A stretch of DNA of 64,000 nt from Nematopogon swammerdamellus (Eukaryota > Arthropoda > Insecta > Lepidoptera > Adelidae). Positions 23,141 to 64,000 of this stretch are shown here, piece after piece. A program made the position numbers and the translations under genes. The stretch is taken from NCBI GenBank assembly GCA_946902875.1, contig OX336340.1:12167566-12231565 (forward strand). The letters are read 5' to 3'. The notes below the pieces were generated by a model. The model was not told the DNA's origin, did no database searches, and saw only the letters and a list, made by a program, of their open reading frames with translations. The stretch's first letter is position 1; every line of letters begins with the position of its first letter.

Positions 23141-23625
23141 TAATGTACCGTGTGGGGTCGGTACTTAAAAAGAATAGCCCCACTGCATCTCTCCCCGTCG
23201 CATGTCGTAAAAGTCGACTAAGGGATAAGAAAATTCGTCAGCCTCGGTAGCTCAGTGGCGCGGTTGGTTAGCCAACTGTTATTAAGCAACGCTGAGCGCG
23301 GTCAGTGATTGGATGGGTGACCGCTCGACCGTTGGAGGCTGACCGTGGTTCGGATTCCACGTTAAACTGTAGGTCCCTTCCCTTCTTACCTTACTAGGTG
23401 GTAGGGTTTATCCCGGCCGGGTTGGTACCACCGCACTGAACGAAACGTCGGTCGAAACGGCTATGTAAATAGTTCGTGTTTTCCGTCCAGTTTAGTGTAG
23501 CCGACATGAAATGAAGGGAAGCACTGACATGGCACCTAGTTCACCCTGTGTTATGGGCTGACATCACGGATGTTGTAGGTGATGTAGCCAACCGTGTCAG
23601 GTTCCATAAAAAAAAAAAAAACAAC
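23141..23625 (+). mobile_element. 5S/tRNA composite SINE, full length with 5' module
   Basis: The best copy for reading the architecture. The 5' module GTGTGGGGTCGGTACTTAAA...AAGGGATAAGAAAATTCGTC is followed by tRNA-like GCCTCGGTAGCTCAGTGGCG. Next comes the 5S rRNA-like TTAAGCAACGCTGAGCGCGG, TCAGTGATTGGATGGGTGAC, CGC, then the B box CGTGGTTCGGATTCCACG. The body is GTAGGTCCCTTCCCTTCTTA...GTCGGTCGAAACGGC, and the tail GCTGACATCACGGATGTTGT, AGGTGATGTAGCCAACCGTG ends in 13 A. The order A box-5S control region-B box is unusual. Confidence 0.9.
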
Positions 23626-43092: not shown

Positions 43093-43376
43093 CTAGCTTT
43101 TGCCCGCGGCTTCGCTCGCGGTAGACTCGGTTTAATAGCAAATCAGATTAAACGCAAATATTATAATAAACAATTGCTTTCCTTATATTATCTCTCTCTC
43201 TCCTGTCCATACTATACTTTCTTTGATACAGCTCAGCCCTATGGCTATTTAGCGTGATGGTATATAGCCTATAGTGAGCCTCAAGAACTAGGTACTCTTT
43301 CCATTGGTGCAAACCGCATCAGTTCATGGTTCCATGTTCAGTGGTTCCAGATTTTACTTCAAACATAGGTACATAC
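43093..43376 (+). repeat. CTAGCTTTTGCCCGCGG-family repeat, left part
   Basis: ACTAGCTTTTGCCCGCGGCT, TCGCTCGCGGTAGACTCGGT and the body match 28228-28550. The element is interrupted at 43376 by the LINE and resumes at 46183 with CAGACAGACGTTCCC and TTTATAAGAAGTAGAGA, exactly as in the 28 kb copy. Confidence 0.85.
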
Positions 43377-45787
43377 TGCCTATTTATGTCTCATGGCACA
43401 ACATGGTCTCTTTCCAGCAATCACACTAGCTACAAGAGGTGCGTCATGCTTAGATCATTACATGGTGAAAGACTGGAGTAACATAAATACTATAATATGT
43501 GAAACTAATGTAACTGACCACTTTCCAATAATAGCTACCACAGTATACACGAGAAAGGCTCAAGTGCTGAATCCCAAAACCAGATTAGTAGTCGAATATA
43601 GCAAAGTGATGGACAGTCTTAATAAACATACGTGGAGCTCACTTTTGAAGGAGACAGACACAAATGCGGCAACCGATAGCCTTATACTTACCCTACAGAC
43701 ATTAATTAAAGATAATACAAAAATGCTCACTTTGCCACATAAAAACTACAACATAAAAAAATGGATAACGCCCAGTTTAATAAAATGCCAACGAAAAAGA
43801 GACAAACTTCATCAAGCTATCCGTAAAAATCCTGATGACATAGGCCTGAAAAATAAATACAAAAGATACAGGAATATTTGCATCAGAGCGACGAAGTGTG
43901 CTAGGGATCTGTATATAGAAGAGGATCTGTTTGAAAACCGCAACAATCCAAAAAACACTTGGAAGATTATAAAATACGCAGCCTCGCTCCCCCAAAGAGG
44001 TCAGAACGATGCCATAGACCTCCTCAAACAGGGAAGCGAAGCGGCGTCAGTACAAGATGTTAATGACTTCTACACAGGCATCGGCAAGTCTCTTGCTGAT
44101 ACTATACTAAAGGCAAACAGCACAAACGAAGCAGAGTTAGCAAGCAAAATCTCGAATCACTCAGACAGCGCTAATGCTAACACCTTCTTCTTTACCCCAG
44201 CAGACGAAATGGAAATTTCAAAGACTGTAGATGAGCTAAAAAATGATTGTGCGCCAGGGTGGGACTGTGTTACTACGAAATTAATTAAGAAATTAAAACA
44301 ATATCTAATTGTACCTTTGACGCACATCTCTAATCTGAGCCTATCTACTGGAGTATTCCCAACCTCGTGCAAAAGAGCCATTGTTGTGCCTATATACAAA
44401 GCAGGTGACAAAACTAACACAGCAAATTACAGACCAATCTCTCTCCTGACGGCCCTCTCGAAAATCATTGAAAAGATAGCTAAGCGTAGACTGTATGGAT
44501 TTCTGGAAAGAGATAATATACTCGCAGCTAATCAATATGGTTTTCGCAACAAAAAGTCAACTCAAGATGCTGTAGGTGATCTCACAGACTATATATCCAA
44601 CAGCATGGATTCGGGTCGGAAATGTATAGGTGTTTTCCTAGATCTCGCAAAGGCCTTTGACACCGTCTCAATTCCCATTCTCTTAAAGAAGTTGGAGCAT
44701 GCGGGTGTCAGAGGACTCCCGCTTGAGTGGTTCAGAAGCTACCTTATAGGCAGAGTACAATGTGTCAGAATTGACACAGTCGTTAGCGAGAACGGAGATG
44801 TAACTTTCGGTGTTCCTCAGGGGAGTGTACTTGGACCCTTGCTTTTCCTACTTTACATAAATGACCTGTGCAAGGCGAGGCTGAAGGGCTGTCACATTTA
44901 CACATATGCTGATGATACTGCATTGGTTTTTGTTGGTGATACCTGGGACAAAACCCATCAACTAGCTGAAACGGGCCTTAGGGATATCAAAGCATGGCTT
45001 GACAACAACCTACTTTCACTGAACGTTGATAAAACAAAACACCTGTGCTTTGGTATCACGCGGGCCTCTCAGCCGTCGAATCCACAAATCCTCCGTATCC
45101 ACTCGTGCTTGAGGGATGAGGCTGTTGGTCGTTGCAGCTGTCCATCTATCCAAAAGGTACCTTCCATTAAATATCTGGGAGTGGTCCTTGACGACAGATT
45201 GTCCTGGGATACCCACTTAAAAATACTCTCACAGCGAGTGCGTAAAACAATTTACATCTTTAAGAGTCTGCGTAACGCTGCTAGTAGAAAATTACTCTAC
45301 ACAACATATCTGGCGCTGGTTCACCCAATACTATCATACTGCATAACGTCGTGGGGCGGAGCGGCAAAGAATCACCTTCTCTCGCTCGAAAGAGCGCAAA
45401 GAGCTCTTCTGAAGGTAGCATTCCGCAAGCCGTACAGGTACCCGACCCAAGATCTATACCAGGAACTAGAACTGCTTACGGTGCGGCAGCTTTTCATCTA
45501 CTCCCTTCTGTGCAGCACGGCCACCAAAACAGGAGATATATCTTCAATGCACATTTATAAAACCCGAACGCGCGGAAGTGGCAAGCAGTTGGTCCCCGCA
45601 ATGCAGACTAGTTTCGGGCAGAGATTCCGATACTTTCTTGGCCCTTACATACTGAATAAGGTCGATCCCAACGCACTATTTAGAGAAATGAAACGAGGGC
45701 AAATGCAAATGATGGTGAAAAATTATCTAATAGGAAGAGGCTATGAGGAGACAGAACGCATTTTAAAGATCCTGACCTGAATCACAC

Positions 45788-46481: not shown

Positions 46482-46745
46482 TTTTTTTTTTTTGGAAACT
46501 GACTCGGTTGGCTACATCACCTACAACATCCGTGATGTCAGCCCATAACACCGGGTGAACTAGGTGCCATGTCAGTGCTTCCCTTCGGTCGTGCCGGCTA
46601 CACTGAACTGGACGGAAAATACAAACTATTTACATAGCCGTTTCGACCGACGACGTTTCATTCAGTGCGGTGGTACCAACCCGGGCGGGTTGAACCCTAC
46701 CACCTAGTAAGGTAAGAAGGGAAGGGACCTACAGTTTTACGTGGC
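46482..46745 (-). mobile_element. 5S/tRNA SINE, 5'-truncated
   Basis: A reverse copy containing the tail, body and TAAAACTGTAGGTCCCTTCC region (as its complement). It stops just before the B box, so the Pol III promoter part is absent. Confidence 0.8.
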
Positions 46746-58052: not shown

Positions 58053-58430
58053 TTTTTTTTTTTTTTATGCAATCTGACACGGTTGGCTACATCACCTACA
58101 ATGTCCGTGATGTCAGCCCATAACACCGGGTGAATTAGGTGCCATGTCAGTGCTTCCCCCTCTGATCGTGCCGGCTACACTGAACTGGTCGGAAAACACA
58201 AACTATTTACATAGCCGTTTCGACCGAACTTTCATTCAGTGCGGTGGTACCAACGCCTGGGTTGGTACCACCGCACCAATCTTACTTGGTGGTAGGGTTA
58301 AACCCTACCACCAAGTAAGATTAGGAGGGAAGGGACCTACAGTTTTACGAGGAATCCGAACCTCGGTCAGCCTCCAACGGTCAGCGGTCACCCATCCAAG
58401 AACTGACCGCACCCAGCGTTGCTTAAGGCG
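58053..58430 (-). mobile_element. 5S/tRNA composite SINE, reverse copy
   Basis: Tail, body, B box and, at the right, the 5S-like part. On the minus strand this reads TTAAGCAACGCTGGGTGCGG, TCAGTTCTTGGATGGGTGAC, CGC. The copy ends at the start of the 5S-like segment, so the tRNA-like A box is missing. The GGTTTAACCCTACCACC region is locally inverted and duplicated. Confidence 0.85.
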
Positions 58431-58979
58431 GTGACAAACGTCAAATACGCAAAACATGCAAAAAGTGCGACAAAGAAGGTTCAAAACTGACCAATTGACA
58501 CACATTCAGAAAATTAAAAAAATACCAACCTATATTTTGGTTCCTTACCAACAAAGTGCATTGCTGGTTTTTTTAATAATGAGTAAAAGTAAGTAATAAA
58601 CATAAAATTAAAAATATATAAAAAAAGCATGAATTTTTGAAAATCTGAGTATGTGTGTATTATTACAATTTTACAATACCACCGATTCAAAGGTCACAAA
58701 GCTCTGAGAAAACTCTATTAAATTTTTTTTATTATTTTATCCACGAAAGGAGATAAAAATAAAAAACAAAAAACGCCTACATGAAATTATTGACGTAATT
58801 CTTCAGTCGGAAGGGTAAAATTTTTGCCTTCGTCAATTTAGCAGGCACTTCAATACTAGATACAATTTTAGTTCCGGGCTCGCTTGCTCGCTCCTGCCCT
58901 GCTGCGCCCGCGTGTCGGTCGTCATTTCTGTCTTCTGTGTTTGGATCGAATGGAAAAAAGATAGGTAGGTTAGGTATAT
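58431..58979. other. No gene seen
   Basis: AT-rich with no assignment. Confidence 0.4.
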
Positions 58980-59375
58980 TTGTACCGTGTGGGATGGTAA
59001 TTTAAAATAATAGCCCCACTGCATCTCTCCCCGTGCATGTCGTAAAAGGCGACTGAGGGATTTTTTTATGTAAACTGACACAGTTTGCTATATCACCTAT
59101 AACATCCGTGATGTCAGCCCATAACACCGGGTGAACTTAGGTGCCATGTCAGTGCTTCCCTTTGGTCGTGCCGGCTACACTAAACTGGACGGAAAATACA
59201 AACTATTTCGGGATATGACTCCCTTCTTTTTTTCCGTCCAGTTCAGTGAAGCCGGTACGACCGAAGAAAAGCACTGACATAGCACCTACTTCACCAGTTG
59301 TTACGAGCTGACATCTCGGATGTTGTAATGTAGGTGATGTTGCCACCGTGTCATTTTCCGTACCAGTATACAGTA
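58980..59375. mobile_element. Mosaic of module A and two facing SINE tails
   Basis: 58984-59060 is module A (plus). 59063-59210 is a SINE tail in reverse, and 59228-59365 is a SINE tail in forward orientation (TTTCCGTCCAGTTCAGTGAA, GACATCTCGGATGTTGTAAT). The facing tails make an inverted repeat. Confidence 0.75.
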
Positions 59376-59827
59376 CGACCGTATCAGTAATATCTCTCTT
59401 CTGTGGTATCTATCAGTATACGCTCCGGTACGTAACTTGACGGGGCGTTATACGCATGGCTTTCGTTGGTATAACCACAGAATAACTAATAGGTACTGTG
59501 GTATAACGCTGTCTGCGCTTGAGATGCAAGGACTATAGAACCGTGCCTAAATGTGCGCTGCGGAGCGGGGGCAGCGGCGGCGGCGGCACTGTGGTGGCGC
59601 GGAGCGGAGACGACGCGGCGGCGCGGCGCGGCGCGGAGGAGCGGCGGCGCGGCGCGGAGGAGCGGCTTGTTATTGCTTGCTTGCATGCGTGAGTGGCCAC
59701 TTGTGTCGTGTCGTGAGTTGTGCGTGGCGCACGGGCCTGACGTCCTGGCACTATTGTATTCACCAAGTTTGAAAATTGAGGGTGAGGATCGTTGTGTCGA
59801 ATTGGCAGAGTTTATAAATTTGCTTCA
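59376..59827. other. GC-rich patch upstream of the Mutator-like gene
   Basis: 59550-59665 is a CGG/GCG-rich tract, CpG dense, followed by unremarkable sequence up to the first candidate ATG at 59828. It could be the promoter or 5' UTR of the gene to its right; there is no direct evidence. Confidence 0.35.
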
Positions 59828-59864
59828 ATGGGCAAACATAAGGCACAAAGTTGTGTGAAGAGAG
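59828..59864 (+). CDS. Candidate first exon of the Mutator-like gene
   Basis: ATGGGCAAACATAAGGCACA encodes MGKHKAQSCVKR and runs to a donor GTAAAG at 59865. Short basic starts of this kind are usual in this protein family. The exon ends in phase 1, whereas the next recognised exon (60594) needs phase 2, so at least one further small exon is required. The assignment is tentative. Confidence 0.3.
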
Positions 59865-60593
59865 GTAAAGCGCTGGCATTGTGGTGAGCAATTTACTTAC
59901 GATACTTTTTATAACCCTTGCTTTTAATTTTCAATACATGTACCTATGTACATTTACAAATTTATTCTGTCTGAAATAAGAACAACATAACTTTAGACTT
60001 ACATAACGCAATTTTGGAATGGTGTTTGTTACGGTCGTCCTGGTTCACGAGGGGGGAGGGGATTTCAAGGGAAATCGCAATTTACGAACTATTTTTCTTC
60101 CCTGAAATTCGGAGCGGGGGGGTAATCATCACACCCAAGTTATAACGGCAGTTGGTCGGTTGGCTATGACAGCCGTGACTAACTTTCCACATTCTTTAGT
60201 AAGGCAAGGTTTCATTATAGTAAATGTCTAACTGTGTAAAAGTGAACCTAATACGAAATTGATATTTCCGCCCGCTCAAGTGTCAGCCTGGAGGTGACCC
60301 CATTTTCCTACCGTCAATTGCCAGCCGCCTCGTGGAGGCGTCTCGGTCCGATTGACTTGAAAAAAAAACTTCCGTCTTCTTGCGATGTCAAATTAGCTCT
60401 GGGATGCGTTCGAAAATTATCGATTTTTTTTCGATTGGGCGGGAACGGATGCGGTTCGGCTTATTTTTCATTTTAAAGCTTATTAATCCACTATCCACAT
60501 CTACACTTAGATATCTATTTGTAGCTGTAGGTTTCAAATGTCTAACTGTGTAGAAGTGAACCTAATACGAAATTGATATTTCCGCGTGAGCAG

Positions 60594-60662
60594 GAACAAA
60601 AGAAAACGGGCGGACGAGGACTGTAATGGGAATGATGATGATAGAGATCAAGGAAGCTCAGA
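60594..60662 (+). CDS. Mutator-like gene, small repeat exon A
   Basis: 69 nt between acceptor CGTGAGCAG and donor GTAAGT. It starts with one base and ends with two bases of split codons, so it is symmetric and can be added or skipped without frame change. The peptide is NKRKRADEDC then NGNDDDRDQGSS, completed by Glu at each junction: a basic start that could serve as a nuclear localisation signal and an acidic end. Confidence 0.7.
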
Positions 60663-60965
60663 GTAAGTACATAACGACCTCCATATTTATCTATACATAT
60701 TATATGTACATATTAGAGCACTACCCTATCACATATTTATTATAGGGGCAGACAGGGGTAATAGGAATGAGATGAAATAAGAGAGCCTATTGATAGCCAG
60801 AATATTCCAGCGGTCTCGAGCGTAGACGCGGCGCAGTTGGTCGGTTGTCTCTGACAGCCGTGACTAACTTTCCCCATTCTTTAGTAAGGCAAGGTTTCAT
60901 TATATTAAAATGTCTAACTGTGTAGAAGTGAACCTAATACGAAATTGATATTTCCGCGTGAGCAG

Positions 60966-61034
60966 GAACAAAAGAAAACGAGCGGACGAGGACTGTAATG
61001 GGAATGATGATGATAGAGATCAAGGAAGCTCCGA
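60966..61034 (+). CDS. Mutator-like gene, small repeat exon B
   Basis: 69 nt, the same peptide as exon A (NKRKRADEDC, NGNDDDRDQGSS) with two silent base changes (CGG to CGA, TCA to TCC). Same splice signals and phase. The identity of the protein despite nucleotide change hints at constraint or a very recent duplication. Confidence 0.7.
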
Positions 61035-61400
61035 GTAAGTTCATACCGACCTCCATATTTATCTATACATACTATATATACATATTAGAGCACTACCCTA
61101 TCACATATTTATTATAGGGGCAGTCGGGGGTAATAGGTATGAGATGGGATAAGAGAACCTAATTTTATAAGAATTAAAAGAATTTTGCTGAAGGGAACCA
61201 CATGAAATTTTATTTTTCATTGCCAATTCCCTCCGGCTCCCCTACATCACGCAAGGATCGGTTGGATTATGGAAAAATAGTTATTATGATATATTTCTAT
61301 ATTATTCAAAAGTTGTATAACCTGTGAATGTATGTAAATATGTTTTGAATAAAATTTACGTACCATACCTAACACCAAATTGATATTTTCATGTAAGAAG

Positions 61401-61466
61401 GAGCAAAAGACAACGCACGGACGCGGACGGTAATGAAAATGATAATAGAGAGCAAGGAAGCTCAGA
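61401..61466 (+). CDS. Mutator-like gene, small repeat exon C
   Basis: 66 nt between acceptor ATGTAAGAAG and donor GTAAGT. It encodes SKRQRTDADGNENDNREQGS plus S, a diverged relative of exons A and B with the same phases. The upstream CCAAATTGATATTTTCATGT matches the intron before A and B. Confidence 0.65.
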
Positions 61467-61653
61467 GTAAGTGCATTATTACCTACGTTCATTTTTGTAT
61501 ATGGACCAGACATGTATTGCTAAGTCATCGCTATACCCGTGTTGTCAGCACCTTAGTGATTTTAAGTATCATGTCAGTGCTGCTACATATTTATCAATTA
61601 CACGTGATTTCTTGTGTGCTTAGTAAATATCAATAAAGTATATTTTTATTTAG

Positions 61654-61746
61654 GATTCAAACAAATGAACTGATCAGTGCGGATCGAGGTACGGATGGTG
61701 ACATGGCAGAGGAGGACGGTAGTAATAAAGATCAGGGAAGCTCAGA
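61654..61746 (+). CDS. Mutator-like gene, small exon D
   Basis: 93 nt between acceptor TTTTTATTTAG and donor GTAAGT. It encodes IQTNELISADRGTDGDMAEE then DGSNKDQGSS. It shares the DQGSS end and phases with exons A-C but has a different start. It splices in frame to the catalytic exon at 62140. Confidence 0.7.
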
Positions 61747-61762
61747 GTAAGTAGAATATAAT

Positions 61763-61945
61763 ATAATAATGTTTATTTCCTTTCTTAAAACAAACATATA
61801 CATCACATGAAGGAACACAAAAGAAGGAGGAAAAGGCAGCCAGCTCAGCTTATGAGCCGCAGCTCCCTCTCGATGAGAGCTTATTCATATTAGTCTATAT
61901 AATTTAGTTTTCATTGTAATTTAGATTAGTTTAGTTTTAGATTAA
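61763..61945 (-). repeat. LINE/SINE-like 3' end in the intron
   Basis: ATAATGTTTATTTCCTTTCT at the left and CAGCTCCCTCTCGATGAGAG further right look like the reverse of a retroelement 3' end with an AATAAACAT signal. It lies in the 393-bp intron between exon D and the catalytic exon. Confidence 0.45.
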
Positions 61946-62139
61946 CATTATAATGATGTTTTAGTAGGTATATAATTGAATTAAGACTTCAGAATTATGA
62001 GAACAGCTTTTGTAAAGGTCACGCTAATCTCGTATCTAATTAACACTGGTGAATTGACTTACCATTATCTTACAATGCAATCTGTGTTACATATATCATA
62101 TTATGAATGTAATCGAATAATAAATTAAATTTTAAAAAG

Positions 62140-63785
62140 GTCTCATTGTCAAGAGAAGCAAATTGGCAGAAGAATTATTAATGTGACACATTTTTTCAAT
62201 AAATTGAAAGAAATCGCACAGCATCTTCCATTTGGATGCGGAATGAGTGCCCTAGTGATAGTTGGCGAAAAGCAAAAAGGGCTGTCTTCATACTTCACGA
62301 TAAAATGTAGTCAGTGCCATGTACAGTTTTACCTCGAAAGCGACTGCGAGGAAGACAACTACGTTGAAATAAACACCTGTGCTGTAGCGGGAACAATAGC
62401 AATAGGAGCTGGCCAAGCGCAACTAGAAGAATTCCTGTCAGCTTTAAACTTACCTCTGATTACGAACAAAACATATCGGCAGAGACACGACAATATTTCG
62501 AAGAATTGGGGAAAAGTTGCTCTTGAATCGATGAAGAAGGCAGGTCAAAAAGAAAGGGAGCTAGCGATTACTGAGGGTAGAGTGACCAAAAATGGAATTC
62601 CTATAATAGACGTTGTTGTTGACGGATGTTGGGCCAAGCGGTCATACAAAAAAAATTATTCATCCCTGTCTGGAGCTGCTGCCGTAATTGGAAATATAAC
62701 TGGAGAAGTGTTGTACTTGGGCGTACGAAATAAGTACTGTTACACATGCGATCGAGCAGACAAACACGACGTTACAGCCAAGGAGCACGTATGTGTCAAA
62801 AATTATTCTGGACCATCGACTGGCATGGAAAGTGACATAATCGTGGAAGCCTTTAAGAACTCCATAGAAATGCACGGTGTGATTTATGGACGCCTTATAT
62901 CGGACGGAGACTCCAGCACCTACGCCAAGATTATACAGTCCCGCCCTTACCCTGACTATACTGTAGAAAAAGTGGAGTGCCGCAATCACTTGCTAAGGAA
63001 CTTCTGCAACAAACTGCAAGCATTAAAAACAGATACGAAATTACCTGTCAAAGCGAGAAAAGCTCTCACCAAAACAAGAATCTTGACGATCAGGTCCATA
63101 ATCTGCAAAGCTATAAAAAAAAACAAAGGCGCAGAATGCCCAGAAGTGCAACACCTATTTGATGATATATTACTAGCTCATCATCACGCTTTTGGAAATC
63201 ACAGCAAATGCAAACCCTACTTCTGCAACAAAATAGGTCAAAACGAAGAAGTTCCTCAAGATTTCTATGTAAGCACACTCTGGCAAAAAATTTGTTTTTT
63301 GATGAGAAGCTTAGCTGCACACGCTCGCAGTTTAATTCACGATGTGGACAGTAATTCTGGAGAACGATATCACAGCATTGTTGCCAAATTCGTCGGCGGA
63401 AAGAGAATTAATTACTGCTTGAAAAACGCCTATCAGACAAGATGTGTTGCGTCTGTAGTCGCATTCAACACAAAGAAGCCTCTTTCCAGGCTCTACAAAA
63501 ATATTACTATCTCCAGTCCAAAAGGAAAGTTAAAAATGTTGGAGAATAGAAGACAGAAAAAAATGATCCTCAACCGGAAGTACAAAAAGATAAAACCAAG
63601 AAATCTATTTAAAAAACAGGACCAGGATTACGGCGAGGAATGTATAAGGCCTGATATGGATCAGGCAGTGTTTAATTTATCTAAAGGTAATTTTATGAAA
63701 AATTTGAAGAAAACTGATGAAGAACGCATTGCACGCACGCACGCATTGATCTGTCTTCTCGCGATAGAATTCGACTACTTCGAAG
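62140..63785 (+). CDS. Mutator-like (MULE) transposase-family protein, catalytic exon
   Basis: 548 whole codons between acceptor TTTTAAAAAG and donor GTACGA. The true exon starts upstream of the in-frame GTG at 62183, with SHCQEKQIGRRIIN, a conserved-looking lead-in. Features counted from the GTG: CSQC pair at 42-45; IIDVVVDGCWAKRSYKK with the first catalytic Asp at 147; NKYCYTC...H...H.C, a probable zinc knot at 184-204; LISDGDSST with the second Asp at 241 or 243; VECRNHLL, the MULE CxxH motif, at 264-271; SNSGERYHS with the candidate Glu at 394. A lysine-rich stretch follows at 446-478. The order D-D-CxxH-E and the DG.W.KRSY signature fit the eukaryotic Mutator-like transposase domain. Relatives often continue into a YqaJ-type nuclease domain, which does not follow here. 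Transposon or domesticated gene cannot be decided. Confidence 0.85.
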
Positions 63786-63882
63786 GTACGAGATTGTCTA
63801 TTGAATTTGTTTTTATATTTTTAACACACGCATTAGTATTATTCTTACCTAATTCTTAGCTAAGTATTTTCTTTCATTTCAG

Positions 63883-63956
63883 TGTGCATCACTTGGCCTC
63901 TCTCTGATGTAATCAGTAAATATAACGGGAGTCGGTGTTTTCACTGCTGCCACTGA
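63883..63956 (+). CDS. Mutator-like gene, last exon
   Basis: A strong acceptor TTCTTTCATTTCAG ends at 63882 after a 97-nt intron. The phase-1 junction forms a Val codon. The exon encodes CITWPLSDVISKYNGSRCFH then CCH and stops at TGA 63954-63956. If real, the protein ends here, shortly after the LKKTDEERI region where related proteins start their nuclease domain. Alternative splicing to exons beyond the window is possible. Confidence 0.5.
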
Positions 63957-64000
63957 AACCTATCCAAACTGATGTCATGTCACTCTTTCGCATTGATCTG

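What the first reader, a model, noticed from the sequence alone, without database searches (positions are those of the whole stretch)
59828..63956. Mutator-like transposase gene with an array of symmetric micro-exons
Four short exons (60594, 60966, 61401, 61654), all with identical phases and all ending in codons for QGSS plus a split Glu at a GTAAGT donor, feed in frame into a 548-codon MULE-type catalytic exon. Phase-symmetric exons can be multiplied or skipped freely, so the protein can carry a variable number of basic/acidic units (KRKR...DDDRD...GSS) ahead of a D-D-E domain. I know of no description of such a modular leader on this family. It could tune nuclear import, DNA targeting or host-factor binding, or mark a domesticated gene.
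Basis: partly seen in the sequence, partly recalled or inferred. Interest (0 to 1): 0.85.

Follow-up and report, generated by a model that had tools for sequence, protein, structure and literature searches.

The report
Kolobok transposon with duplicated leader exons
In an insect genome (probably a moth or butterfly), a jumping gene of the known Kolobok family, with its cutting enzyme intact but its partner nuclease lost, carries a short exon copied several times near its start; an unusual but explainable variant of a known mobile element.

Summary
The exon array is real as a sequence pattern: four segments of 69, 69, 66 and 93 nt, each between AG and GTAAGT, all phase 2-2, reading in frame from an MG- leader exon into a 1646-nt catalytic exon. 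They are tandem duplicates, short exons rather than micro-exons, without transcript evidence.

The interpretation changes. The protein carries the Kolobok signature (D, CCHC finger, D, CxxH, second finger, E) and groups with exonuclease-bearing (KolobokE-type) proteins, not classical MULEs. A distant KolobokE family in this genome (five near-identical copies; TTAA at all five 5' ends and three of three 3' ends read) shows the same leader/phase-2-intron/catalytic plan; exons copied inside that intron must be 2-2, which explains the symmetry.

The window gene lies in such an element: a 3'-truncated copy on contig 18, 0.67% diverged, shares its start at TTAAGG (58423) with different flanks, and carries the leader exon plus one unit (E1). 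The array therefore rode on a recently mobile element, which disfavours domestication. Its 3' terminus was not found.

The parts
58423..58435 (+). 5' terminus of the element, TTAAGGCGGTGAC; the base before it (C) is also shared, flanks beyond differ between the two copies
   Evidence: (window and contig-18 copy); sibling family starts TTAAGGTGAT
59828..59883 (+). Predicted first coding exon MGKHKAQSCVKRGKALALW, donor GTGAGC, phase 2; an in-frame alternative donor lies after 59880
   Evidence: identical stretch in the contig-18 copy (302 bp, 100%)
60148..60271 (+). Partial duplicate of the region upstream of E2 (60833-60957, 95%) that stops just before the acceptor and carries no exon; lies in the stretch 60062-60477 that the contig-18 copy lacks
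60533..60789 (+). Duplicated unit, copy 1 (contains E1)
   Evidence: 257 nt, 95% to 60905-61161
60594..60662 (+). Exon E1, 69 nt, phase 2-2, NKRKRADEDCNGNDDDRDQGSS; identical in the contig-18 copy
60905..61161 (+). Duplicated unit, copy 2 (contains E2)
60966..61034 (+). Exon E2, 69 nt, two third-position differences from E1, same protein
61401..61466 (+). Exon E3, 66 nt, 56 of 66 aligned bases as in E1; adjacent 40-nt flanks 68-70%
61654..61746 (+). Exon E4, 93 nt; clearly shares only its 3' end and donor with the others
62140..63751 (+). Catalytic exon, part homologous to Kolobok-type transposases (PF20700; D161, CCHC finger 200-218, D255/D257, C280xxH283, second finger 354-362, E408 in exon numbering)
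63742..64000 (+).

Best explanation
A KolobokE-type DNA transposon that was mobile recently, now with an incomplete 3' part. Its ancestor had a short basic leader exon, one phase-2 intron, and a long exon coding for a DDE transposase followed by a lambda-exonuclease. Inside the phase-2 intron a short exon with its flanks was tandemly duplicated, so the predicted protein has up to four units (three basic-then-acidic, the fourth diverged), probably disordered, between its N terminus and an intact catalytic domain. A rearrangement removed the exonuclease part and left a tandem repeat there. Likely working (inferred): transcription from the element's 5' region, splicing in of a variable number of units, nuclear entry through the KRKR motifs, DNA binding and cutting by the catalytic domain; the leader acts as nuclear signal and spacer, and its unit number is probably close to neutral. 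Shown: anatomy, duplication, catalytic residues, loss of the exonuclease sequence, the shared TTAAGG start with a second recent copy. Inferred: that the second copy arose by transposition, transcription, splicing, any activity.
For: PF20700 at 1.5e-101. Relatives carry PF20700 plus YqaJ: 70 of the 120 proteins listed (of 254 found) hold the TASNF motif. Tested catalytic and zinc-ligand residues all present; 2 of 90 conserved positions deviate, equal to the median of 91 sequences. Model pLDDT 87.4; the five PDB matches with E up to 0.001 are all ISCth4 transposase. Signature as published for Kolobok/KolobokE. Grouped at 99/95 with P0003, P0006, P0009 and P0031, three of them named lepidopteran. 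Contig-18 copy: window 58422-60883 matched in pieces, 13 substitutions in 1937 aligned bases (0.67%), shared C-TTAAGG start with different flanks, E1 identical. Sibling family: TTAA at 5 of 5 5' ends and 3 of 3 3' ends read, GG..CC termini, same leader/intron plan. 0 hits of 40 YqaJ tails in the window plus about 19 kb downstream.
Against: No transcript evidence. Acceptors before E1, E2, E3 and the catalytic exon have poor pyrimidine tracts. The element's 3' end was not found; the one candidate, 19 nt at 65874-65892, is weak (E 0.14) and lies in what looks by eye like a tRNA-type SINE. The contig-18 copy stops matching at 60883 without a recognised terminus and has no catalytic exon, so a segmental copy that happens to start at TTAAGG is not excluded. 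Two conserved features deviate in the window protein: G237 is A (G in 89 of 89 others), and the residue before the catalytic E is G where others have V (78) or A (12). Both genome searches scored only 40 candidates (of 59 and 160), so counts are lower bounds.
Confidence: 0.65

Rival explanations
1. Dead relic: the exons are not spliced as predicted; the array is a chance tandem duplication in a decaying element and no protein is made.
For: Weak acceptors; exonuclease part lost and replaced by a 248-bp repeat; one partial copy upstream lacks the exon; the other copy is truncated.
Against: Intact catalytic frame of 529 codons and conserved residues; four matching donors and frames whose phase fits both ends. 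Low divergence from the other copy (0.67%) means intactness may simply reflect youth.
Confidence: 0.2
2. Domesticated host gene: the transposase was co-opted and the modular leader is kept and varied by selection, perhaps by alternative splicing of in-frame units.
For: One catalytic exon at high identity; E1/E3 exon more alike than flanks, Fisher p 0.03, and 0 of 1500 neutral simulations stop-free since the E1/E3 duplication; splice sites and frames kept in 4 of 4 units.
Against: Recent second copy of the 5' part with the same TTAAGG end, so the sequence was copied recently and selection on a mobile element explains the intact frame. Since the younger E1/E2 duplication an intact frame is unsurprising (P 0.18; 0.43 at the lower bound of divergence). 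E1/E3 show no third-position excess. No protein with this leader found. My odds were 0.2 before and are lowered for that reason.
Confidence: 0.07
3. The contig-18 copy is a segmental duplication, not a transposed one, and the window gene is an old immobile Kolobok remnant.
For: The copy ends at 60883 without a recognised terminus and lacks the catalytic exon.
Against: The shared stretch starts at C-TTAAGG, the kind of end the sibling family has.
Confidence: 0.06
4. Classical Mutator-like (MULE) transposase gene, as the first reader and the Pfam name say.
For: Pfam calls PF20700 'Mutator-like transposase'.
Against: TTAA ends, two zinc fingers and the exonuclease partner of the relatives fit Kolobok as described in PMC9587614; MULEs give 8-11 bp duplications (recalled).
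Confidence: 0.02

Closest known systems
KolobokE lineage of Kolobok DNA transposons (Kojima and Bao 2022, PMC9587614; abstract, found passages and section 10 read)
   Same: DDE triad with C/DxxH, CCHC finger after the first D and a second finger before the E; TTAA and a GG start at the 5' end; relatives and sibling carry a lambda-exonuclease-like domain
   Different: Window copy has lost the exonuclease, its 3' terminus was not found, and it carries an exon array in the leader intron
Sibling 13.8-kb KolobokE family in the same genome (copies on contigs 31, 29, 20, 11, 10)
   Same: MGKQ- basic leader exon, predicted phase-2 intron, PF20700-type exon, TTAAGG start
   Different: Keeps the exonuclease part, five near-identical copies, no exon array; leader is one proline-rich exon with an 84-bp-spaced internal DNA repeat; distant in the tree
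Helicoverpa armigera LOC126056452 (P0027)
   Same: PF20700-YqaJ protein whose leader holds a duplicated 35-residue stretch, 37 residues apart
   Different: Unit unrelated in sequence; exon structure unknown here

Membership tests
Kolobok superfamily, KolobokE lineage | DDE triad with C/DxxH between second D and E | tested here: met
   D161, D255/D257, C280-H283 and E408 present, and identical in every homolog with a residue there (89 or 90 of 90); motif from PMC9587614
Kolobok superfamily, KolobokE lineage | CCHC finger after first D and second finger between C/DxxH and E | tested here: met
   C200, C203, H216, C218 and H354, C357, C362; description
Kolobok superfamily, KolobokE lineage | Lambda-exonuclease-like (YqaJ) domain downstream of the transposase | tested here: not met
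   0 hits of 40 YqaJ tails (of 70) in the window plus about 19 kb downstream; present in relatives and, by eye from the shared TASNFG and IEIKCP-like motifs, in the sibling. The window copy is therefore called KolobokE-type or KolobokE-derived, not an intact KolobokE
Kolobok superfamily, KolobokE lineage | TTAA target duplication and 5'-RR..YY-3' termini | tested here: inconclusive
   5' side: TTAA-GG at 58423 in 2 of 2 copies with different flanks. 3' side: not found. Sibling family: TTAA at 5 of 5 5' ends and 3 of 3 3' ends read, GG..CC
Mutator-like elements (MuDR/MULE) | Match to the Pfam model named Mutator-like | tested here: met
   PF20700, 340 bits; the name is Pfam's
Mutator-like elements (MuDR/MULE) | 8-11 bp target duplications (recalled) | tested here: inconclusive
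   No longer flanking repeat in the 3 sibling copies read at both ends; not testable at the window copy, whose 3' end is unknown
Domesticated transposase gene | Immobile, one copy, no transposon end | tested here: not met
   Catalytic exon has one full-length match, but a 0.67%-diverged second copy of the 5' part and a TTAAGG end exist
Domesticated transposase gene | Orthologs at the same place in related species, and expression | not testable with these tools
   No insect genomes other than the window's own and no transcripts were at hand

The most novel reading that the evidence does not exclude
A recently mobile KolobokE-type transposon that carries an expandable cassette of interchangeable 2-2 exons in its leader intron and, by duplication and alternative splicing, makes transposases with a variable number of KRKR-acidic units, for instance to tune nuclear entry or partner binding.
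Probability: 0.12. Interest if true: 0.6.

Novelty: new variant of a known kind. Interest (0 to 1): 0.36.

Why it matters
It shows how the fast-changing N terminus of KolobokE-type transposases can be remodelled: exons copied inside a phase-2 intron stay in frame, so leader length can change without touching the catalytic domain, and the change can travel with the element. It also suggests that at least some insect proteins named 'Mutator-like' by Pfam are Kolobok transposases.

Tried and rejected
No confirmed relatives in viral or prokaryotic contigs with the patterns the tool used. The leader was searched twice in the protein database with no match at E up to 10 (189 candidates; 2 candidates). 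Sibling-type ends within 40000-83235: one exact ATCACCTTAA at 66499 and three one-mismatch matches, judged chance. A GC-rich inverted match 59559-59631 / 65312-65380 flanks the gene (77%); it vanishes with the low-complexity filter and similar GC-rich matches occur elsewhere, so it is not taken as terminal repeats. Leader region against 224 kb of held loci and the first 59.4 kb of the window: one 54-bp intronic fragment; the later genome-wide search gave itself, two pieces at one contig-18 locus, and 38 fragments of 75-91% from window 61745-61881, a dispersed repeat. Literature: aimed at exon duplication on transposases, listed 0 papers; searches listed 0; some searches listed 5, 2, 2 and 1, of which only PMC9587614 was opened; open-licence papers only. 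One search's global E1/E4 alignment is gappy and its 84% should not be used. One search's 98 mismatches between 3' repeat units come from a one-base shift; one search gives 99%. Before I held that the gene had no transposon end and was stranded; overturned this.
Full report
Observation. The first coding exon has two possible phase-2 donors, after 59880 and 59883; with the second, the seven-exon model translates to 690 aa and stays in frame when all four exons are skipped. 66-93 nt is longer than what is usually called a micro-exon (recalled).

Origin of the array. E1 and E2 lie in 257-bp direct repeats 372 bp apart, 95% identical; E3 is an older copy, E4 clearly shares only the 3' end and donor, and a partial copy at 60148-60271 holds the flank without the exon. 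E1/E2 differ at 2 of 69 exon positions, both third positions, and at 11 of 188 flank positions. E1/E3 differ at 10 of 66 exon bases and 24 of 78 flank bases, Fisher p 0.03, but the differences fall at codon positions 1, 2, 3 as 5, 2, 3, so the conservation is not clearly at the protein level.

Identity. The catalytic exon matches PF20700. The search found 254 proteins among 7990 scored candidates and listed 120: the best named ones are lepidopteran, weaker ones come from other arthropods including spiders; many carry YqaJ (PF09588) after PF20700. A profile of 44 rows matches lambda-type and related exonucleases in the PDB (7 distinct sequences). Kojima and Bao (PMC9587614: abstract, found passages and section 10 read) describe Kolobok as TTAA-duplicating, with RR..YY termini and C/DxxH; KolobokE has both zinc fingers and a lambda-exonuclease-like nuclease. 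The window protein has the residues tested (the first 90 of 104 homologs longer than 560 aa, of 120). Its model (pLDDT 87.4) matches ISCth4 transposase best, at a modest TM-score of 0.43 by target length.

Sibling family. The window lies at G000:C8:12167566-12231565. The catalytic exon has one full-length match, itself; of 47 matches, two are 44-nt tandem pieces just downstream and 44 are pieces of 67-76% identity. The strongest of those belong to a family with five copies compared, 99.99-100% alike; its full 13.8 kb was measured between contigs 29 and 11. Its ends are TTAA-GG..CC-TTAA (5' in 5 of 5, 3' in 3 of 3 read). Its gene has an MGKQ- leader exon, an intron that I read as phase 2 (GTACAT..TTTTTTACAG), and a 921-codon frame that I read as transposase plus exonuclease by its likeness to the homologs. 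The same plan in two distant lineages (tree of 36 of 120 homologs plus both genes) suggests that the phase-2 intron is old; exons copied inside it must be 2-2, so the symmetry needs no special explanation.

The element. The genome-wide search with window 59760-62139, answered, found one other place with the leader exon and an array unit, on contig 18. There, window 58422-60883 is matched in pieces, 13 substitutions in 1937 aligned bases (0.67%). Both copies start at C-TTAAGGCGGTGAC and differ outside it, the kind of start the sibling has. Over 256 bases round the exon the contig-18 unit differs from E1 at 2 positions, while E2 stands alone at 12, so the copy was made from E1 after the E1/E2 duplication. 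It lacks about 80 bp of a palindrome (59154-59232) and window 60062-60477, which holds the exon-less partial copy, and it stops matching at 60883; no homolog matches its 20 kb by tblastn (60 of 120 proteins). I take it as a recently transposed, 3'-truncated copy; a segmental copy is not excluded. The 3' terminus of the window element was not found.

State of the window gene. Homology ends by 63751 and no YqaJ sequence lies within about 19 kb downstream (40 of 70 tails and 60 of 120 proteins used). The 529-codon homologous frame is intact. Under neutral substitution since the E1/E2 duplication that has P 0.18 (0.43 at the lower bound of divergence); since the E1/E3 duplication 0 of 1500 runs stay intact. 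With a recent copy known, selection on a moving element explains this as well as domestication does. 2 of 90 strongly conserved positions deviate (one, G237A, is otherwise invariant), the median for the set; the residue before the catalytic E is G instead of V or A.

Leader in relatives. Of 38 leaders tested, 35 come from homologs; one (P0027) has a clear duplication of 35 residues, unrelated in sequence, and one (P0071) a weak 11-residue match (0 of 60 shuffles). The other rows are the window, the window without E2 (1 of 60 shuffles reach it), and the sibling (5 of 60), whose 84-bp-spaced DNA repeat (82%) does not stand out at protein level. Leader growth by duplication is seen elsewhere but is rare in this sample. 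The unit itself has no protein match.

Verdict. A KolobokE-type transposon copy, recently mobile, without its exonuclease, with a tandemly duplicated exon in its leader intron. Interesting as exon duplication on a transposase leader carried by a mobile element, ordinary in mechanism. The odds of domestication were lowered from 0.2 to 0.07 because.

Noticed in passing
L011/L012; G000 contigs 31, 29, 20, 11, 10: A 13.8-kb KolobokE transposon family with five copies 99.99-100% alike where compared, so probably active very recently. The contig-10 copy lacks about 438 bp inside the transposase frame, so it may have moved with help from another copy or lost the piece later.
   Followed up: partly
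L018:5678-7994: Reverse-transcriptase-like frames inside that element (seen by eye, no family search), suggesting a LINE inserted in it and carried along.
   Followed up: no
L009:307-955 (window 63742 to about 64390): 248-bp tandem repeat, 2.6 copies, 99% alike, standing where the exonuclease part is expected; each unit carries an acceptor-like and a donor-like site.
   Followed up: partly
window 59061-59362: Palindromic repeat inside the element with many copies in the window (for example 46485-46631, 58060-58208, 23467-23614), MITE-like; the contig-18 copy lacks its centre.
   Followed up: partly
window 43369-45780: 803-codon open frame with a reverse-transcriptase look (YADD motif, by eye), probably a LINE.
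   Followed up: no
P0027 (Helicoverpa armigera LOC126056452): Leader with a tandem duplication of 35 residues, another case of leader growth in this family.
   Followed up: partly
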